Notes: generated by a model not told the origin, from the sequence alone. A stretch of 64,000 nt of DNA from Melioribacter roseus (GCA_020722065.1 DYLK01000007.1:1-64000); one strand, 5' to 3'; numbered from the stretch's first letter, positions 4,417-55,773 are shown. Made by a program: numbers and translations.

Positions 4417-4488
<72 letters not shown>

Positions 4489-10613: not shown

Positions 10614-10687
10614 TGACCCCAACGGGGATCGAACCCGTACTCTCCACCTTGAAAGGGTGATGTGTTAACCTATTACACCATGGGGCC
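10614..10687 (-). tRNA. trnE: tRNA-Glu (TTC), copy 1
   Basis: Complete cloverleaf on the minus strand: acceptor GGCCCCA with TGGGGTC (one G-T pair), anticodon loop CTTTCAA giving TTC, T-loop GGTTCGATCC, discriminator A, no encoded CCA. Identical over its full length to the copy at 10738-10811. Confidence 0.96.
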
Positions 10688-10737
10688 TCAGAAAATGCAT
10701 TTTTTAATATACTTAAGATTAAAAATTTAAAAACGAG

Positions 10738-10811
10738 TGACCCCAACGGGGATCGAACCCGTACTCTCCACCTTGAAAGGGTGATGTGTTAACCTATTAC
10801 ACCATGGGGCC
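10738..10811 (-). tRNA. trnE: tRNA-Glu (TTC), copy 2
   Basis: Same 74-base sequence as the neighbouring copy, separated from it by a 50-base AT-rich spacer whose sequence is not repeated on the other side. This is a tandem duplication of the tRNA body only, or one homogenised by gene conversion. Confidence 0.96.
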
Positions 10812-10820
10812 GATTTTTTG

Positions 10821-10895
10821 GGTGGGAGATGGGACTTGAACCCACGACCTCCTGGGCCACAACCAGATACTCTAACCAACTGAGCTACACCCACC
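10821..10895 (-). tRNA. trnH: tRNA-His (GTG)
   Basis: Anticodon loop TTGTGGC gives GTG. The extra 5' G(-1) expected for tRNA-His is encoded at 10895 and faces C73 at 10821. The acceptor GTGGGTG against CTCCCAC leaves a U-U mismatch at position 6-67; everything else pairs normally. Confidence 0.93.
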
Positions 10896-10909
10896 ATAAA
10901 ATTAAGAAG

Positions 10910-10982
10910 TACGCCCGAGTGGGGTCGAACCACTAACCTACGGCTTAGAAGGCCGTTGCTCTATCCATTGAGCTACGGGCGC
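10910..10982 (-). tRNA. trnR: tRNA-Arg (TCT)
   Basis: Minus-strand cloverleaf with acceptor GCGCCCG and CGGGCGT (G1-U72 wobble), anticodon loop CTTCTAA giving TCT, T-loop GGTTCGACC and discriminator A. It reads AGA/AGG arginine codons, frequent in this AT-rich genome. Confidence 0.95.
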
Positions 10983-11017
10983 AAGTATATTAAAATCAAC
11001 AATTTAAGAACTATTTG

Positions 11018-11092
11018 TCGGGGCGGCAGGATTCGAACCTGCGACCTCCTGGTCCCAAACCAGGCGCGATAACCGGACTACGCTACGCCCCG
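11018..11092 (-). tRNA. trnP: tRNA-Pro (TGG)
   Basis: Acceptor CGGGGCG pairs perfectly with CGCCCCG; anticodon loop TTTGGGA gives TGG; T-loop GGTTCGAATCC; discriminator A. It is the first tRNA of the minus-strand array Pro-Arg-His-Glu-Glu, spaced by 10-50 bases, probably one transcript whose promoter lies between 11093 and about 11160. Confidence 0.96.
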
Positions 11093-14314: not shown

Positions 14315-15433
14315 TCACATAAAAATATCTTTATTTCTTTCAAATTCAACATCCCAATTTAATTCCTGCACAGCTCGAATTGTATTTGATTTCATTTGTA
14401 ACAAATATTGAGGATTGTCTCGCATAGTTTGTATTTCATTCTTCAGATTTGCTTCCGGATCATGTTCTAAATTCACAATTCTACCAATTTTAAACTTTTC
14501 AATAATTTGTTTCATTTGCGGTAAATCAGATGACAAAATTGGAATTCCAGAATTTATATACTCAAAAAGTTTATTTGGCAACGCATAGAAATAGCTTAAC
14601 GAAATATTTTCAATCAATGATAACCCAATATTAGCCGAAGCAGAATAATTTATTAATTCGTTATGTTCCACTAATCCAGTAAAAAAAACTTTTCTCTCCA
14701 GCCGTTTTTCTTCAACAATTTTCTTGTATTCTTCAGATTTCGGACCATCGCCAACTATAATAAATGCAATATTATCAATTTCTGATATTGTATTTAGAAC
14801 TAACTTTATTCCTCGTCCTTCTTGCAAAATCCCTTGATAAATCATTATAAAACAATCATTTGGCAAATTATATTTCTCTCGAAAATCAATTTTGGAAGTT
14901 GGGAAAGTCATTTTTGGAATATTTCTTATTACACGTACATTTGAAATTTGATATTGCTTTTCCAAAATCTCCTTATCCATTTCTCCAGTTGCGAGCACAA
15001 CGTCAACTGATTTAATAAATTTATTTTCAATCCAACTAATTAACTTTTGAATTTTCGGTCGATTTGAAAGACCGCCGAGAGCAAAATAAAACTCACGACT
15101 ATTATATAAAATTTTTGCTTTTCTAATTTTTGCCCAAAACACAACAATTGGAAGCGAATAAACATCTTCAGCAATATAAGTTTTTGCTTTAATTTCCTTG
15201 AGTTGAAAAAATGCTAAATAAATGAATTTCAAATAAAAAATGAAAGCGGGACGGCGTTTTATTTTAAAGATAAACCAATTAGTTTTTGATATTTTCCTCG
15301 AGTTTTCAAACCAATCAAACCCAACAACTGCAGTAGATTTTGAATTTTTCGTTAACGATTCATCAAGATTAACAAGTCTTGAATCGTAAATTGGGTTGGA
15401 AAGGAAAACCGAGCAAAAATCAACGGAAATCAT
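14315..15433 (-). CDS. Glycosyltransferase family 1/4 (GT-B fold)
   Basis: Predicted cytoplasmic, retaining glycosyltransferase that uses an activated sugar donor. The C-terminal Glyco_trans_1 half has YQGILQEGRGI, IVGDGP and a glutamate-containing FEYINSGIPIL segment of the donor site. 372 residues fits GT4 members. It is the last gene of a six-gene minus-strand operon, starting 2 bases after the FemAB-like gene, which suggests that it acts on a surface glycan or glycosylated protein belonging to this cluster. Donor and acceptor cannot be read from sequence. Confidence 0.85.
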   Translation of the reverse strand: MISVDFCSVFLSNPIYDSRLVNLDESLTKNSKSTAVVGFDWFENSRKISKTNWFIFKIKRRPAFIFYLKFIYLAFFQLKEIKAKTYIAEDVYSLPIVVFWAKIRKAKILYNSREFYFALGGLSNRPKIQKLISWIENKFIKSVDVVLATGEMDKEILEKQYQISNVRVIRNIPKMTFPTSKIDFREKYNLPNDCFIMIYQGILQEGRGIKLVLNTISEIDNIAFIIVGDGPKSEEYKKIVEEKRLERKVFFTGLVEHNELINYSASANIGLSLIENISLSYFYALPNKLFEYINSGIPILSSDLPQMKQIIEKFKIGRIVNLEHDPEANLKNEIQTMRDNPQYLLQMKSNTIRAVQELNWDVEFERNKDIFM

Positions 15434-15435
15434 TT

Positions 15436-16401
15436 TTAATAAGTGTACTTAAATGTATTTCTCATAACAGTTTTTGCATCAAACTTTTCTTTAAATATTA
15501 TTAAATTTCTACTTGGAGTCATCGGATTTTCAGCTTTTGTATCTTGAGAAACACCAATATCAACATAAGAAAAACCATTTTCCGTAGCATCAAGAATTAG
15601 TTCATACATTACTCGTTGAATAGGTTTTAAGTGCTGAAAATCGTATTTGAGCATATTGTAGAAACACAATGCAACTTGTTTATTTGGATAAAACATTAAC
15701 GAACCGCCAATAGGATTATCTTTATAATAAACCATAAAAAGTTTAAGTTCATTGGGCATAAGTTGTTTTAATTTTAGCAAATCTTCGTAAGAATGTGTTG
15801 GTTTTACATCATGACGAGCTTTATTTTCAAGCAGAATTGGATAAAATTCATCGTATCTTTCATTGATTTCGACACGAATATCCGGATTTGAGAGTGATTT
15901 TCTTACATTTCTTCTGATCGTTGGAGAAAATCGTTCGAGATAATCAATCCCTTTTTCCAACTTAATTGCACTCGAAATGTAATGAAGATCATATTTGAAG
16001 CCGAGCCAAAGTAACGCAAAATCTAAATTTTCATTCTGATGATTTTCATAAACTCGCGGTGCCGAAGTTAAATAGATTGTTTCCCAATTTTGCTCTTTCC
16101 CATAATTAATAAGAGTTTGGACAAGCTCCAATGCTGTTTCAAATTTAAGATCTTTTGTAACCAAAGAACCATAACTTGCTCCAATTGGTGATTCAAAAGA
16201 ATTTCCATTTCTTATTGAGCCTGGTAAAAGAGCCAAAATATTGCTATTTTCGATAAAAATTAAATGATTAAAAGTAAATTTCCCTGGTGTGTGATAATCA
16301 AAAAATGCTTGTTTATGAAACATTGTCCCATTGTTTGATTCATCTACAAATTTATCCCATTTTTCTTTCCATTCCTCTGAATATTGAATAACTTCAATCA
16401 C
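15436..16401 (-). CDS. FemAB/GNAT-type acyl or aminoacyl transferase
   Basis: Member of the FemAB-related GNAT acetyltransferase superfamily (Acetyltransf_6-like). Markers are a middle SPTIRRNVRKS segment with clustered basic residues and a C-terminal half with GGSLMFY, a buried ALCFYNML strand, YELILDATENGFSYVDIG and KEKFDA. 321 residues is a single double-GNAT unit. Relatives attach amino acids to peptidoglycan or acyl groups to polysaccharides; the substrate here is unknown. The position between PorV/PorQ genes and a glycosyltransferase suggests modification of an envelope glycan or anchored protein. It starts 8 bases after the upstream gene. Confidence 0.75.
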   Translation of the reverse strand: MIEVIQYSEEWKEKWDKFVDESNNGTMFHKQAFFDYHTPGKFTFNHLIFIENSNILALLPGSIRNGNSFESPIGASYGSLVTKDLKFETALELVQTLINYGKEQNWETIYLTSAPRVYENHQNENLDFALLWLGFKYDLHYISSAIKLEKGIDYLERFSPTIRRNVRKSLSNPDIRVEINERYDEFYPILLENKARHDVKPTHSYEDLLKLKQLMPNELKLFMVYYKDNPIGGSLMFYPNKQVALCFYNMLKYDFQHLKPIQRVMYELILDATENGFSYVDIGVSQDTKAENPMTPSRNLIIFKEKFDAKTVMRNTFKYTY

Positions 16402-16409
16402 TAAAAAAC

Positions 16410-17303
16410 CTATAAACTATAACTAAATGAAATAATGTGTGAATTTCCAAGTGAATAATCAAATGGAGAATATGCGTAATCGAATTGAATATTTTTCCAA
16501 TTTAACCCAATTCCTGCAGAGTAGGATTTTGCTTCATATCCAGTAAAATAACCACCTCGAATAAAGAACAAGTTATCATAAGCAAATTCCGTCCCAAAAT
16601 GGAAATGTGTTGGTTCGTTGTTAAAATATTGTTTTGTTGCTAAAATGAATTTTGAATCAAGTTTGAACTCTTCAAACGGAATTTGATAATCTGCTCCAAA
16701 CGAGACTGAAGTTGGTAATTCAATTTTTTCTGCTCGAAATTCTGAGATACTTCCCAAATTCTGTAATGAAAAAGCCAAGTTTACATTTTCAAAAATGTTT
16801 GAATAGTAGCCACCGAAATCAAATCCGTAGCCTGTTGCTTCGTTTGTGTAAATTCCTTCGTATAAATACTTTATGGTACTTCCGACTGATAATTTTTCTG
16901 AAATTTTTATTGCTGTTGAAAAATTTGCAGCTAAATAATTTGCCCGAAAAGTGGCTTCTGGTTCGCCTGGGTTTGTGTAAACTTCAATATCATCAATTCT
17001 AAAATTTGATATTGAAAAAGCGAATGGAATTTGCCAAAGAATGAATTTTGTTGCAAAGTATTGGTTTGTAACATCGTTCATCCATGAATTGTGTGTAAAA
17101 TGAAATTCCGTTTGTGTGTTTAATGTTAAAGTTGCAGGATTATAATAAGCTCCAGTAACATCTGAAGTTAAAATTCCGACATCGCCAGTAGAAATATTTT
17201 TAGCTCCAACTCCAACTTTTAGGAATGAAGCTCCGCTATTTATATTTGTTTGAGAAAACCCAACTGCAAAAGACAAAATCAACATAATTGCTATTTTATT
17301 CAC
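16410..17303 (-). CDS. PorV/PorQ-family outer-membrane beta-barrel protein
   Basis: Predicted 297-residue outer-membrane protein with an N-terminal signal peptide (about 1-18, ending near FSQ). The early block GASFLKVGVGAKNISTGDVG followed by YYNPATL is the family fingerprint. PorV and PorQ are known T9SS accessory barrels that bind secreted cargo C-terminal domains, but this family in Ignavibacteria-like genomes has many paralogues, so its role in secretion is inferred. The protein ends in alternating aromatic residues with a terminal SYSL, as outer-membrane barrels do. A second family member precedes it by 19 bases. Confidence 0.78.
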   Translation of the reverse strand: MNKIAIMLILSFAVGFSQTNINSGASFLKVGVGAKNISTGDVGILTSDVTGAYYNPATLTLNTQTEFHFTHNSWMNDVTNQYFATKFILWQIPFAFSISNFRIDDIEVYTNPGEPEATFRANYLAANFSTAIKISEKLSVGSTIKYLYEGIYTNEATGYGFDFGGYYSNIFENVNLAFSLQNLGSISEFRAEKIELPTSVSFGADYQIPFEEFKLDSKFILATKQYFNNEPTHFHFGTEFAYDNLFFIRGGYFTGYEAKSYSAGIGLNWKNIQFDYAYSPFDYSLGNSHIISFSYSL

Positions 17304-17322
17304 TAATTTTTCCTTTTTAACA

Positions 17323-18309
17323 TTAGAAATTTAACATTATTCCCAAAATATGCCTATCTGAAATTGTAACGGCATCATAAACAAATGCATAATCAAAACC
17401 AACAAGCAATTTAGAAACTTGGCGATTATAACCAAATCCAATTGATGGAAGTGAAGGCTCTTCAAAATTTGAAAGGTTTATTCTATCAAAACCGCCACGC
17501 AAAAACATATTTTCTATCAAATTATATTCAAAACCAAAGCGAAAATAGTTCGTTTCAAGGTTCGATCTTTCAAATTCGGTTGCCAAAAGTAAATTGTATT
17601 CTTCAAAATGATAAGAGCTACCGATTTTGTAAAACATTGGAAATTTATTTGTTTCTTCAGTGCCATAAATATCATAAAGTGAAGTGGAATTCCATTTGTA
17701 ACTTGAATTTATGTCAGTAATTAATAATGACAAATTCCAATTTGGATTAATTTTGTAAAGAAATCCCAAATCGAAACCAAAACTAGTTGTTGTTATTTCC
17801 TTATACAAACTATAATAATAAAATTTTAGGTTTAACCCGACTGACAATTTATCGCCAAAGTTTTTAGAAATCGAACCATAAAATAAATTCTCTGATGTAG
17901 ATAATTCGCCAAGCAAATTTCCTTCATCGTCTCTTTCTTCAATTTTAGAAACGCCTGAATTGATTAACCCGACACTGAAACCAGCTTTTGATTCATTTCC
18001 CTTTTCTTTGCTACCGAAAGTGAAATTCCGAGTAAAGCTAATAAAATTCAAACTTCTATCTAAAGCGAGAAAGGAATAACCAGAATGAAAAGAATTTTGT
18101 TCTTGATAAATAGAAATTGCTGGATTATGAAATCCAACTAAATTTCCCATTGTTACTGATGAAAGTGAATTCCCCATTGAAATTCCGCGTGCTCCAAATC
18201 CCATTCTACTAAAAGCTCCAGGTTTTCCAGCTAATTGGCTAATTTCTTGTTGGGCAAAACTAATGGACGCAAAAAACAACATCAAAACTATAAATTTATT
18301 TATTCTCAT
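17323..18309 (-). CDS. PorV/PorQ-family outer-membrane protein, second paralogue
   Basis: Second, more diverged family member (328 residues) with a signal peptide cut near SFAQ and the fingerprint FGARGISMGNSLSSV then FHNPA. The remaining sequence alternates short amphipathic strands and ends with a phenylalanine (MLNF), the usual barrel assembly signal. Its ATG overlaps the stop of the upstream T9SS-cargo gene by four bases (18306-18309), a coupling that suggests a working link between this barrel and that cargo. Confidence 0.78.
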   Translation of the reverse strand: MRINKFIVLMLFFASISFAQQEISQLAGKPGAFSRMGFGARGISMGNSLSSVTMGNLVGFHNPAISIYQEQNSFHSGYSFLALDRSLNFISFTRNFTFGSKEKGNESKAGFSVGLINSGVSKIEERDDEGNLLGELSTSENLFYGSISKNFGDKLSVGLNLKFYYYSLYKEITTTSFGFDLGFLYKINPNWNLSLLITDINSSYKWNSTSLYDIYGTEETNKFPMFYKIGSSYHFEEYNLLLATEFERSNLETNYFRFGFEYNLIENMFLRGGFDRINLSNFEEPSLPSIGFGYNRQVSKLLVGFDYAFVYDAVTISDRHILGIMLNF

Positions 18310-19904
18310 TTTATCACCATAATCTTTCCAAAAAGTGCATCATTATCATCAATGTTTATTTTATAAAAATAAACTCCATTTGGCAATAATTCACCAGAAT
18401 CATCTTTTCCATCCCAAATTTCCATTCTTTCGCCCTTGTTTCGTTCAACATTTTGAACAAGAGTACGAACTAATTGCATATTGAAATCATAAATTCTGAT
18501 AGTAATTTGCTGAGTTTCCTTTTCGACAAAATATTTTATTCTTACAATATCATAATTAGGATTAAATGGATTTGGAAACGCATAAGTTGAAACAGAATTT
18601 TTTAATGCTGTTGAAGCAAAGAATATTTCCCAATTTCCATTCCAAGCAGTAGTTTCTGTTAATTTTGCTAAACCGCCTGAAGTTCCAACCCAAATATTGA
18701 ATTCCCCATTTCCCAAATCATTGGAAGCAACAGAATAAAAGGCTTCATCTTCTATTTCAATGGATTTATATTCATCATAAATGGAATTTGGAGTTGTCCA
18801 ACTCGAACCTTGATTTTCACTTCTAAAAAGATTATTAGAAGTTGCGACAAAAACATCACTAACTTGCTCAGAACCAGAAAAATATTTCTTAAAACCAAAA
18901 CCATGCGGCTTTTCATTTTCGAGAACAGTTTTCCAAGAATTTCCACCATTTACTGAATAGCTAACTGCATAATATTCGCTTGTTTCAACTGCTTGCCAAG
19001 TTGATGCCCAAATTGTTTCTGTTGTGTTATCATATCCCAAAGCTGTAATAAAATTTCCACTAATTGCTGAATCTTGATTTTGATGATTAAATTTTATCCA
19101 ACTTTTTCCACCATCTTCTGATTTGTTTATTCCATTTGCAGTTCCTACATAAAGATGATTTGAATCTGTTGCAACAATCGAAAATGCCACGTGATTATTA
19201 TTCGCTTCATTTCCAAATGAACCAGAAACTGCTTGAATTGTAAATGAATACTGTTCATCTGGCGTAATCTCATCAAGATAATCGGGAGGCAGTACAATTC
19301 TTTCCCAAGTAACTTCAGGATTTTCAAGTAAATCTGAAATTAATGCTCTTCTCAAATTTCCCGCCCACGAAGTTGTGTAAAGATAACCGTCTAAAACTGC
19401 CATGTCGTAAGTTACATTTTGTTGTTCTACTGTTACTGGAAGAATTCGTAAAGTATTTACTCCATATACAATTAGCGAATCTCCTGGTTTGTCAACTGAT
19501 TGCGGGTGAGAAATCCAAGTTTGTCCACCATCGGTTGTAATTTTTATCCCAGAACCTGTAATTACACTTTCTCCAGTAGTTGGGTCGAGTTCATTATGTC
19601 CTGTTGACACAAATATAATTCCATTATTCTCTTCGATTGATATTATAGCTTCAGTTCCAAAAGCTTCAGATTGGTAAAAATTTGTCCAACTTATTCCGTT
19701 GTTATCTGTAAAACTTAATCCTTTGCTTGTTCCAACCCAAATTGTATCATTAACTATTACAATTTCATTTATAGAATTGCTTAATGGTGTTGAAGTTGAA
19801 GAATTCAGTTTTCGTAACTTATTATCAAGTTGAAAATTTTCTGGTTTTATCTGTGATAACAAACTTATTGAAGTTAGTAAAATTAAAATCATTAATTTTT
19901 TCAT
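18306..19904 (-). CDS. Secreted beta-propeller protein with T9SS C-terminal sorting domain
   Basis: 532 residues: signal peptide (1-18, ending LLSQ), then repeated blades with Asp-box-like NGGxSW or DGGQTW motifs (for example IWVGTSKGLSF and NNGISW), like sortilin/BNR propellers. The last 85 residues are a FlgD-like Ig/T9SS type A sorting domain: FPNPFNP, IRIYDFNMQLVRTL, WDGKDDSGELLPNGVYFYKI and a basic-aliphatic end. It should be exported and released or anchored at the cell surface by T9SS. No enzymatic motif is seen. It lies second in the six-gene operon, with 4-base overlaps at both ends. Confidence 0.82.
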   Translation of the reverse strand: MKKLMILILLTSISLLSQIKPENFQLDNKLRKLNSSTSTPLSNSINEIVIVNDTIWVGTSKGLSFTDNNGISWTNFYQSEAFGTEAIISIEENNGIIFVSTGHNELDPTTGESVITGSGIKITTDGGQTWISHPQSVDKPGDSLIVYGVNTLRILPVTVEQQNVTYDMAVLDGYLYTTSWAGNLRRALISDLLENPEVTWERIVLPPDYLDEITPDEQYSFTIQAVSGSFGNEANNNHVAFSIVATDSNHLYVGTANGINKSEDGGKSWIKFNHQNQDSAISGNFITALGYDNTTETIWASTWQAVETSEYYAVSYSVNGGNSWKTVLENEKPHGFGFKKYFSGSEQVSDVFVATSNNLFRSENQGSSWTTPNSIYDEYKSIEIEDEAFYSVASNDLGNGEFNIWVGTSGGLAKLTETTAWNGNWEIFFASTALKNSVSTYAFPNPFNPNYDIVRIKYFVEKETQQITIRIYDFNMQLVRTLVQNVERNKGERMEIWDGKDDSGELLPNGVYFYKINIDDNDALFGKIMVIK

Positions 19905-20680
19905 TCTACAACCTCAATATTTTGTGAAATTACATTACTTAAAGCATTGGAATAATCTCGGGCTTGGAACTCAAATCGATAAGTACCCAAAACTGCAGTT
20001 GCTGGGAACATCAATTTGTTTGTAAAAATACCATCGTTTGCTGTAACATCGCCACTTTCTGAAGTATCGCCCAAATCGGAAAGTGGATATTCACTAATAT
20101 TCTCGCTATTAACTATCAAATTCCCATCTATGTCGTAAAGTCGATAGAAAACTAATTTAATATCCGAATAACCATTCGAATCTTCCGCTTCAATTGTAAA
20201 AGTAAAAGCTGTATTTCTTTGTATTTGCGTAGGCATTACCAAATTTGAGACTTGTGGGGCAGTATTCACTACGTCAGAAATAAAATCAAAGTAAGAAATT
20301 CCTATTAATACTTCTTCATGCTGAAAATCTTCAACAACAAAATACAATTTATATCTTCCAGCTATTTTAAGCGAATCAGTTGGAATTTCTGTGATAAAAT
20401 TCCCCACTTCTCCATTTTCAAAAGATAATTCAAGTGGGAAAGTTATTTCAATATTGTTTGGCGAAATTAACGACACCCAAACACTATCAATTTGTGTTTT
20501 CCAATTATTAATTTCTACTGAAATAGGTACATTTTCTTCTGTGAAATGTACATTTTCTGGTGAATTTACTGAAAGCACTTGATATGCTTCAATATTTATA
20601 TTTGGGTCAATAATATTGTCATATTCCTTTTCACATCCAACTAAAAGGAATAACAAAAAAGCTAATAGTAGTGTTTTCAT
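19901..20680 (-). CDS. Lipoprotein with Ig-like domains
   Basis: The signal peptide ends in a lipobox LLVGC with the lipidated Cys at residue 16, and the mature N-terminus EKEYDN should be carried outside the cytoplasm by the Lol system. The rest (about 245 residues) is beta-rich: one domain around 25-130 and a second around 135-260 opening with APQVSNLVMP and containing TFTIEAEDSNGYSDI, which resembles an FN3/cadherin-like fold. I chose ATG 20680 because it starts the signal peptide directly; the frame is open upstream to 20728 but those residues are not signal-like. First gene of the six-gene operon. Confidence 0.75.
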   Translation of the reverse strand: MKTLLLAFLLFLLVGCEKEYDNIIDPNINIEAYQVLSVNSPENVHFTEENVPISVEINNWKTQIDSVWVSLISPNNIEITFPLELSFENGEVGNFITEIPTDSLKIAGRYKLYFVVEDFQHEEVLIGISYFDFISDVVNTAPQVSNLVMPTQIQRNTAFTFTIEAEDSNGYSDIKLVFYRLYDIDGNLIVNSENISEYPLSDLGDTSESGDVTANDGIFTNKLMFPATAVLGTYRFEFQARDYSNALSNVISQNIEVVE

Positions 20681-55537: not shown

Positions 55538-55559
55538 AAAAGTTGGTAAAACTATTATG

Positions 55560-55635
55560 TTTTCCTACGCCAGCATTATCTGGTTCAGGTTCAAGGGTAT
55601 AATCTCAGTCCCAAATGGAACACCCCTAACGGCTT
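55560..55635 (-). promoter_or_regulatory. TPP riboswitch (THI element)
   Basis: The minus strand shows the THI-box core in order: AGGGGTG, CTGAGA, ACCCTTGAACCTG, ACCAGATAATGCTGGCGTAGG. These are the pyrimidine-sensing T-loop (CUGAGA) and pyrophosphate-sensing regions of the TPP aptamer. A transcription terminator lies about 25 bases downstream and the TonB receptor gene follows. The expected effect is termination when TPP is plentiful. The hexamer GCCGTT just 5' of the aptamer repeats the left arm of the terminator and could pair with its right arm. Confidence 0.95.
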
Positions 55636-55773
55636 TTCAGTAAATTAAAAAAACGTGTGCAAAATTAATATTTTTTCTAAAACACAACAAATAAATTATT
55701 ATTTTGACGCACTTACTAATTGAATCTTAGTTATGAGACAATTTTATTATATTTCATATAAAACGAACGTAAT

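What the first reader, a model, noticed from the sequence alone, without database searches (positions are those of the whole stretch)
14315..20680. Six-gene coupled operon: lipoprotein, T9SS propeller, two PorV/PorQ barrels, FemAB-like transferase, glycosyltransferase
Stops and starts overlap or nearly touch throughout (4-base overlaps at 19901 and 18306; gaps of 19, 8 and 2 bases). The set links a secreted T9SS cargo and a lipoprotein with two family members of the T9SS shuttle protein and two enzymes that could build or attach a surface glycan or conjugate. T9SS cargo is known to be attached to a lipopolysaccharide; this could be a dedicated cargo-specific export and anchoring unit.
Basis: inference. 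Interest (0 to 1): 0.65.

Follow-up and report, generated by a model that had tools for sequence, protein, structure and literature searches.

The report
Conserved secreted propeller with own barrels
A six-gene operon in an Ignavibacteria genome contains a gene set that has stayed together across much of its phylum: a lipoprotein, a propeller protein exported by the type IX secretion system, and two outer-membrane barrels of the kind that normally serve that system, which suggests an undescribed surface complex separate from the known sortase machinery.

Summary
In detail: six same-strand ORFs, with overlaps and gaps as stated, between convergent and divergent neighbours. The real unit is smaller and older than proposed. 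The lipoprotein (LIPO), a BNR/Asp-box propeller with a T9SS C-terminal domain (PROP) and two PorV/PorQ-family barrels (PVa, PVb) form a conserved core. LIPO-PROP-PVa is intact in 61 of 61 loci of the order. PROP-PVa persists in 47 of 50 PROP-selected loci outside the order, in 25 families. Each barrel is one clade, apart from the genome's own PorV and PorQ. PROP is not PorZ: the genome also has canonical PorU, PorV, PorQ and PorZ. The core survives in 11 genomes without detectable PorU or PorZ that keep SprA and PorV. The FemAB-like and glycosyltransferase genes are an exchangeable glycan attachment: FEM is VimA-like by superfamily, and other lineages carry different glycan genes there or none. 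Best reading: a T9SS-exported propeller held uncleaved on its own barrels, working with a surface glycan. Cargo-specific anchoring by FEM/GT is not supported as obligatory. Barrel binding is inferred; structure models failed.

The parts
19901..20680 (-). LIPO: lipoprotein (signal sequence with LVGC lipobox; choice-of-anchor X / Ig-like), first gene of the core
   Evidence: Cys16 invariant in 18 relatives; conserved next to PROP in 61/61 loci of the order and in most PROP loci outside it
18306..19904 (-). PROP: secreted beta-propeller (five Asp-box motifs, residues 66-369) with a T9SS C-terminal domain (residues about 443-532)
   Evidence: one hit per genome at E<=1e-40 in 125 of the 127 matching genomes of a 296-genome phylum sample; CTD profile closest to the PorU CTD
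17323..18309 (-). PVa: divergent PorV/PorQ-family outer-membrane barrel, paired with PROP
   Evidence: NF033709 67.9 bits, E 1e-18, below the cut-off of 90; ortholog in about 73 of 77 relatives; one clade 100/100 across classes
16410..17303 (-). PVb: PorV/PorQ-family outer-membrane barrel
   Evidence: NF033709 147.6 bits, cut-off 90; profile matches solved F. johnsoniae PorV 6h3i_F, E 5e-21; one clade 99/95
15436..16401 (-). FEM: FemAB/GNAT-type aminoacyl transferase-like enzyme, VimA-like by superfamily
   Evidence: PF13480 and TIGR03019; profile matches solved aminoacyl-tRNA-dependent peptide synthases and a lipid II glycyltransferase; 64-75% identity to orthologs in other genera of the order
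14315..15433 (-). GT: GT4 glycosyltransferase
   Evidence: PF00534 E 5e-15; follows FEM in most loci of the order, or PVb directly in families f8, f19 and f29

Best explanation
LIPO-PROP-PVa-PVb encodes a conserved outer-membrane surface complex attached to the T9SS. PROP is made with a Sec signal, crosses the outer membrane through SprA by means of its CTD (inferred from the CTD and from SprA being present), and is then held, probably with its CTD uncleaved, by its own PorV/PorQ-family barrels PVa and PVb, as PorZ sits on PorQ and PorU on PorV (inferred). LIPO is probably an outer-membrane lipoprotein partner (inferred). The Asp-box propeller most likely binds or presents a surface glycan of the LPS/O-antigen kind. 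FEM (adding an amino acid to a sugar, as VimA does) and GT make or finish that glycan in this order, and other lineages use different glycan genes in the same place. Shown: gene content, conservation, orthology and independence from PorU/PorZ. Inferred: barrel binding, retention of the CTD and glycan binding.
For: LIPO-PROP-PVa is intact in 61/61 loci of the order and PVb follows in 60; LIPO and PROP overlap or touch in 53/61. PROP-PVa are neighbours in 47 of 50 PROP-selected loci outside the order, 25 families. PVa and PVb are each one clade, apart from the genome's PorV (C53, 254 bits, cut-off 250) and PorQ (C37, 260 bits, cut-off 220). The PROP CTD profile is nearest to the PorU CTD, and the PorU model finds PROP's tail at E 4e-9. 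Eleven genomes keep PROP while neither PorU nor PorZ was found, and all eleven keep SprA and PorV. 61 of 90 loci with PVb have a glycan-type gene in the downstream same-strand run, of at least three unrelated sets. Relatives carry GT2, polysaccharide deacetylase and radical SAM genes upstream. Precedent: PorZ, two propellers plus an uncleaved CTD, is anchored by a barrel, binds A-LPS and works with PorU (PMC8545088).
Against: No direct evidence of binding: AlphaFold models from two sequences were unusable (pLDDT 29). The PROP CTD profile also matches ordinary cargo CTDs well, so cleavage by PorU is not excluded where PorU exists. Asp-box propellers also occur in hydrolases and assembly factors, so glycan binding is only one option. 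Glycan neighbours differ between lineages and are absent in about a third of loci. Some families lack a recognised PVb or LIPO, and families f22 (L209) and f26 have loci with LIPO-PROP but no PVa. The 11 PorU-less genomes still have other CTD proteins, 7-32 each, so PROP is not the only substrate left.
Confidence: 0.5

Rival explanations
1. Ordinary cargo reading: PROP is a normal T9SS cargo, shuttled by PorV, cut by PorU and linked to a glycan that FEM and GT help to make; the two barrels supply extra shuttle capacity. This is.
For: PROP has a recognisable type A CTD; the genome has PorU, PorV, PorQ and PorZ; FEM is of the VimA/TIGR03019 kind (PMC7468200).
Against: PROP persists with its barrels in 11 genomes without detectable PorU or PorZ. 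FEM and PROP rarely co-occur in the class outside the order. Eight top-scoring CTD genes (L001-L008) and the two other CTD genes in the window show no PorV-family barrel beside them. Ordinary CTDs here end in KKM-type tails, PROP's in GKIMVIK.
Confidence: 0.22
2. Glycan housekeeping reading: the unit is part of outer-membrane or LPS assembly. PROP, LIPO and the barrels form an assembly or transport complex for the O-antigen-like polymer made by the neighbouring genes, and the T9SS only exports PROP.
For: Glycan genes on both sides in many lineages, including Wzx flippases, GT9, GT4 and polysaccharide deacetylases, with a site-2 protease directly upstream. PorV/PorQ barrels are related to the FadL-type transporters, as the FadL match of family member L110 shows.
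Against: The glycan genes are not homologous between lineages and are missing from about a third of loci. The barrels match PorV/PorQ and not known LPS exporters.
Confidence: 0.18
3. The six genes are an operon of convenience: a conserved four-gene core of unrelated purpose (for example a surface hydrolase with its export barrels) that happens to be co-transcribed with two polysaccharide genes.
For: PROP has weak similarity to a glycosylhydrolase family and to sialidase-type Asp-box repeats. FEM also occurs in class members without PROP.
Against: Unrelated glycan gene sets recur next to the core in several families, which is hard to explain by chance.
Confidence: 0.1

Closest known systems
PorZ-PorQ / PorU-PorV attachment complex of the T9SS (P. 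gingivalis)
   Same: A propeller protein with a T9SS CTD working with PorV/PorQ-family barrels at the surface and linked to glycan; PorZ binds A-LPS (PMC8545088).
   Different: PROP lacks the PorZ N-terminal propeller domain and PorZ model match, has one propeller region rather than two, is operon-linked to two barrels, co-exists with a canonical PorZ, and persists where PorU and PorZ were not found.
Type B CTD adhesins with cognate PorP/SprF shuttles (F. johnsoniae)
   Same: A T9SS substrate encoded beside its own outer-membrane shuttle (PMC12618676).
   Different: PROP has a type A/FlgD-like CTD and the barrels are PorV/PorQ family. That paper states that type A CTDs are all recognised by PorV.
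VimA-VimE-VimF and the Wbp/Vim linking-sugar pathway (P. gingivalis)
   Same: A FemAB/GNAT-type enzyme of the TIGR03019 family together with a glycosyltransferase, in a T9SS organism.
   Different: No VimE-type deacetylase in this operon. VimA's sequence was not at hand, so orthology is untested. FEM also occurs without PROP.
XrtA/PEP-CTERM FemAB protein (TIGR03019)
   Same: FEM matches this model at E 1e-8.
   Different: 34.5 bits against a cut-off of 260; no exosortase over cut-off in 39 relatives, own genome included.

Membership tests
T9SS type A CTD protein | C-terminal match to TIGR04183 / PF18962 over cut-off | tested here: met
   PROP: TIGR04183 25.0 bits, cut-off 23. PF18962 25.1 against 27 for the protein scan, 28.1 with neighbours in the frame: borderline.
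T9SS type A CTD protein | CTD cleaved by PorU and replaced by a glycan | not testable with these tools
   Needs proteomics; persistence of PROP in PorU-less genomes argues against dependence.
PorV/PorQ family (NF033709) | Model score over 90 bits | tested here: met
   Met by PVb, 147.6 bits. PVa scores 67.9 bits, significant but under the cut-off, so PVa is only a distant member.
Canonical PorV or PorQ | NF033710 at least 250 bits or NF033711 at least 220 bits | tested here: not met
   PVa and PVb are far below both; canonical PorV and PorQ lie elsewhere in the genome and fall outside both clades.
PorZ | PorZ N-terminal propeller domain PF21544 / PorZ model NF052228 | tested here: not met
   No match for PROP; the genome's PorZ is at C13:9731.
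PorZ | Binds the anchoring glycan and a PorQ-type barrel | not testable with these tools
   Structure models unusable.
VimA-type linking-sugar enzyme | FemAB/GNAT family match (PF13480/TIGR03019), as reported for VimA | tested here: met
   PMC7468200.
VimA-type linking-sugar enzyme | Orthology to VimA and transfer of an amino acid to a sugar | not tested
   VimA sequence not at hand; activity needs biochemistry. The profile matches aminoacyl-tRNA-dependent enzymes.
XrtA/PEP-CTERM FemAB | TIGR03019 over 260 bits and an exosortase in the genome | tested here: not met
   34.5 bits; no exosortase over cut-off.
Type B CTD with PorP/SprF shuttle | TIGR04131 over 35 bits and a PorP/SprF-type barrel | tested here: not met
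   PROP 21.9 bits; the barrels match the PorV/PorQ family model.

The most novel reading that the evidence does not exclude
PROP-PVa-PVb-LIPO is a phylum-wide, undescribed T9SS accessory complex with its own shuttle barrels, a type A-like counterpart of the SprB-SprF pairing, that works without the PorU/PorZ sortase machinery. It may be one case of a wider rule in which FlgD/PorU-type CTDs are each encoded next to a dedicated PorV-family barrel; four further barrels in this genome follow genes with such tails.
Probability: 0.35. Interest if true: 0.78.

Novelty: new variant of a known kind. Interest (0 to 1): 0.6.

Why it matters
The current statement in the field is that type A CTDs all use one shuttle, PorV, while only type B CTDs have cognate shuttles (PMC12618676). 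A deeply conserved type A-like protein tied to two dedicated PorV/PorQ-family barrels would mean that shuttle specialisation also exists on the type A side, and that T9SS surface complexes exist beyond the PorU-PorV-PorQ-PorZ set. Genomes that keep this unit but seem to have lost the sortase make the question directly testable: what holds T9SS proteins on the surface when no sortase is there?

Tried and rejected
PROP as PorZ or its replacement: rejected, because canonical PorZ is in the genome and in all genomes of the order in the phylum sample and PROP does not match the PorZ models. FEM as part of a PEP-CTERM/exosortase system: rejected. FEM and GT as obligatory partners of PROP: rejected by distribution. 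Structure prediction of PROP and PVa with two sequences gave pLDDT 29, so no fold search was run; loci from whole-genome searches were not handed to that tool because its stated rule does not list them. Solved-structure profile searches found PorV for PVb, propellers for PROP and aminoacyl transferases for FEM, nothing firm for PVa and only chance-level matches for LIPO. A direct VimA comparison was not possible. Literature searches found no description of this unit; the library holds open-licence papers only, so this does not prove novelty.

Full report
Observation. Six ORFs on the minus strand, 14315-20680, are packed as described: 4-base overlaps LIPO/PROP and PROP/PVa, gaps of 19, 8 and 2 bases, bounded by a convergent ABC transporter (ends 14301) and a divergent QueF gene (21038). 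The aligned relatives support the lipoprotein start at 20680. Against a congener (G003) all six are intact with dN/dS 0.09-0.25. The genome (G000, 2.38 Mb) has 48 Por_Secre_tail matches. A named relative at 95% protein identity is a Melioribacter roseus-labelled MAG.

What the genes are. LIPO: lipoprotein with an LVGC box and a choice-of-anchor X domain. PROP: secreted protein with five Asp-box motifs, matched by BNR, sortilin, Ycf48 and sialidase-type propellers, ending in a T9SS CTD (TIGR04183 25.0 bits, cut-off 23; also FlgD_ig). PVb: PorV/PorQ family (147.6 bits, cut-off 90), whose profile matches solved PorV. PVa: the same family at E 1e-18 but under the cut-off, with no solved relative found by sequence. 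FEM: Acetyltransf_6/TIGR03019, whose profile matches aminoacyl-tRNA-dependent peptide synthases and a lipid II glycyltransferase. GT: GT4.

Conservation. PVa has an ortholog in about 73 of 77 relatives. In 61 loci of the order LIPO-PROP-PVa is always present in that order, PVb follows in 60, and LIPO and PROP overlap or touch in 53. These loci were selected by PVa, so the stronger test is the phylum sample selected by PROP: 127 of 296 genomes have PROP, 125 of them as a single hit at that threshold. PVa lies on the same strand close by in 47 of the 50 such loci read outside the order, in 25 families; one of the three exceptions is a contig end. Loci were read in most but not all of the matching genomes. 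In family f37 and in one f22 locus PVa lies upstream of LIPO instead of downstream of PROP. PVa and PVb are each one clade over these lineages (100/100 and 99/95), separate from the genome's own PorV, PorQ and other barrels. The unit therefore looks old and mainly vertically inherited.

Relation to the known T9SS. The genome has PorU followed by PorV (C53), PorQ (C37), PorZ (C13) and SprA (C41). PROP is thus an additional protein. Its CTD profile is nearest to that of PorU, then ordinary cargo CTDs; PorZ's CTD is reported not to be cleaved by PorU (PMC8545088). Comparing, eleven genomes (G132, G148, G175, G185, G210, G232, G254, G258, G262, G320, G328) have PROP but neither PorU (E<=1e-100) nor PorZ (E<=1e-6). 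All eleven have SprA, PorV and 7-32 CTD proteins. Loss of PorQ, PorU and PorZ with the rest kept has been reported for Sphingobacteriia (PMC7323717). The PROP unit evidently does not need the sortase.

Glycan link. FEM-GT follows the core in most loci of the order. Other loci have a different FemAB-like enzyme (31-37% identity to FEM), a GT4 and a Wzx flippase, or GT4-Wzx-polysaccharide deacetylase-GT4-GT9/WecB, or GT alone in f8, f19 and f29. The names Wzx, GT4, GT9 and WecB for these neighbours were read from the sequences and not scanned against families. Of 90 loci with PVb, 61 have a glycan-type gene in the downstream same-strand run; this count rests on a reference set that I chose from these loci, so it describes recurrence and is not a test against chance. 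FEM is not tied to PROP: within the class but outside the order, 15 genomes have PROP only, 24 FEM only and 4 both (the FEM profile includes both FemAB subtypes). VimA, which completes the linking sugar in P. gingivalis, also matches TIGR03019 (PMC7468200), so FEM is plausibly an amino-acid-to-sugar transferase; orthology with VimA is untested. Exosortase is absent over cut-off in 39 relatives, which removes the PEP-CTERM reading.

Mechanism proposed. PROP is exported through SprA, held with its CTD uncleaved on PVa/PVb beside LIPO, and acts on or with a surface glycan; FEM and GT make that glycan in this order. Gene content, conservation, clade structure and persistence without PorU/PorZ are shown. 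Barrel binding, CTD retention and glycan binding are inferred.

A wider hint. In this genome four further PorV-family barrels (C20, C33, C64, C34) form their own clade, and each directly follows a gene with a FlgD/PorU-type tail. Only the C20 tail is recognised by CTD models; the other three resemble PROP and PorU tails in profile comparison (95.6 and 97.0% probability) more than ordinary cargo tails (60.2%). The eight top-scoring ordinary CTD genes and the two others in the window have no barrel beside them. These were small, chosen sets and need a whole-genome survey.

Limits. Genomes are anonymous, so the lineages outside the class are known only as family handles. AlphaFold models failed. 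Some assemblies are incomplete, so an absence in a single genome is weak; the PorU/PorZ absences rest on 11 genomes of 97% completeness or more in 4 genera.

Noticed in passing
own genome, loci L101, L102, L104, L105 (C20, C33, C64, C34): Four further PorV-family barrels each follow directly after a gene with a FlgD/PorU-type CTD-like tail and form their own clade; ordinary KKM-type CTD genes examined show no such barrel.
   Followed up: partly
genomes G132, G148, G175, G185, G210, G232, G254, G258, G262, G320, G328: Genomes with SprA, PorV and 7-32 CTD proteins but no detectable PorU or PorZ: a T9SS that seems to lack its sortase.
   Followed up: partly
own genome C37, locus L103 14-2367: Canonical PorQ lies directly after a Wzx-type polysaccharide flippase gene, a second barrel-glycan neighbourhood.
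   Followed up: no
own genome C34:46610-51244, loci L113 and L114: A second PorU-like protein (237 bits, under the cut-off of 420) with a PorU-type tail and no barrel directly downstream.
   Followed up: no
relatives L041, L044 and most loci of the order, upstream of LIPO: A conserved block of flippase-like, GT2, polysaccharide deacetylase, GT2, radical SAM, DUF1207-like and site-2 protease genes (named by reading the sequences) precedes the core in relatives but is missing beside it in the window.
   Followed up: partly
window 55545-55637: TPP riboswitch, minus strand, 66.9 bits against a gathering score of 54.3.
   Followed up: no
window 10614-11092: Five tRNA genes in a row on the minus strand, with a sixth at 4417-4488.
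   Followed up: no
genomes G094, G164 and other class members (loci L227, L228): The FemAB-like enzyme is kept in 24 class genomes that have no PROP hit, so it has a role of its own.
   Followed up: no
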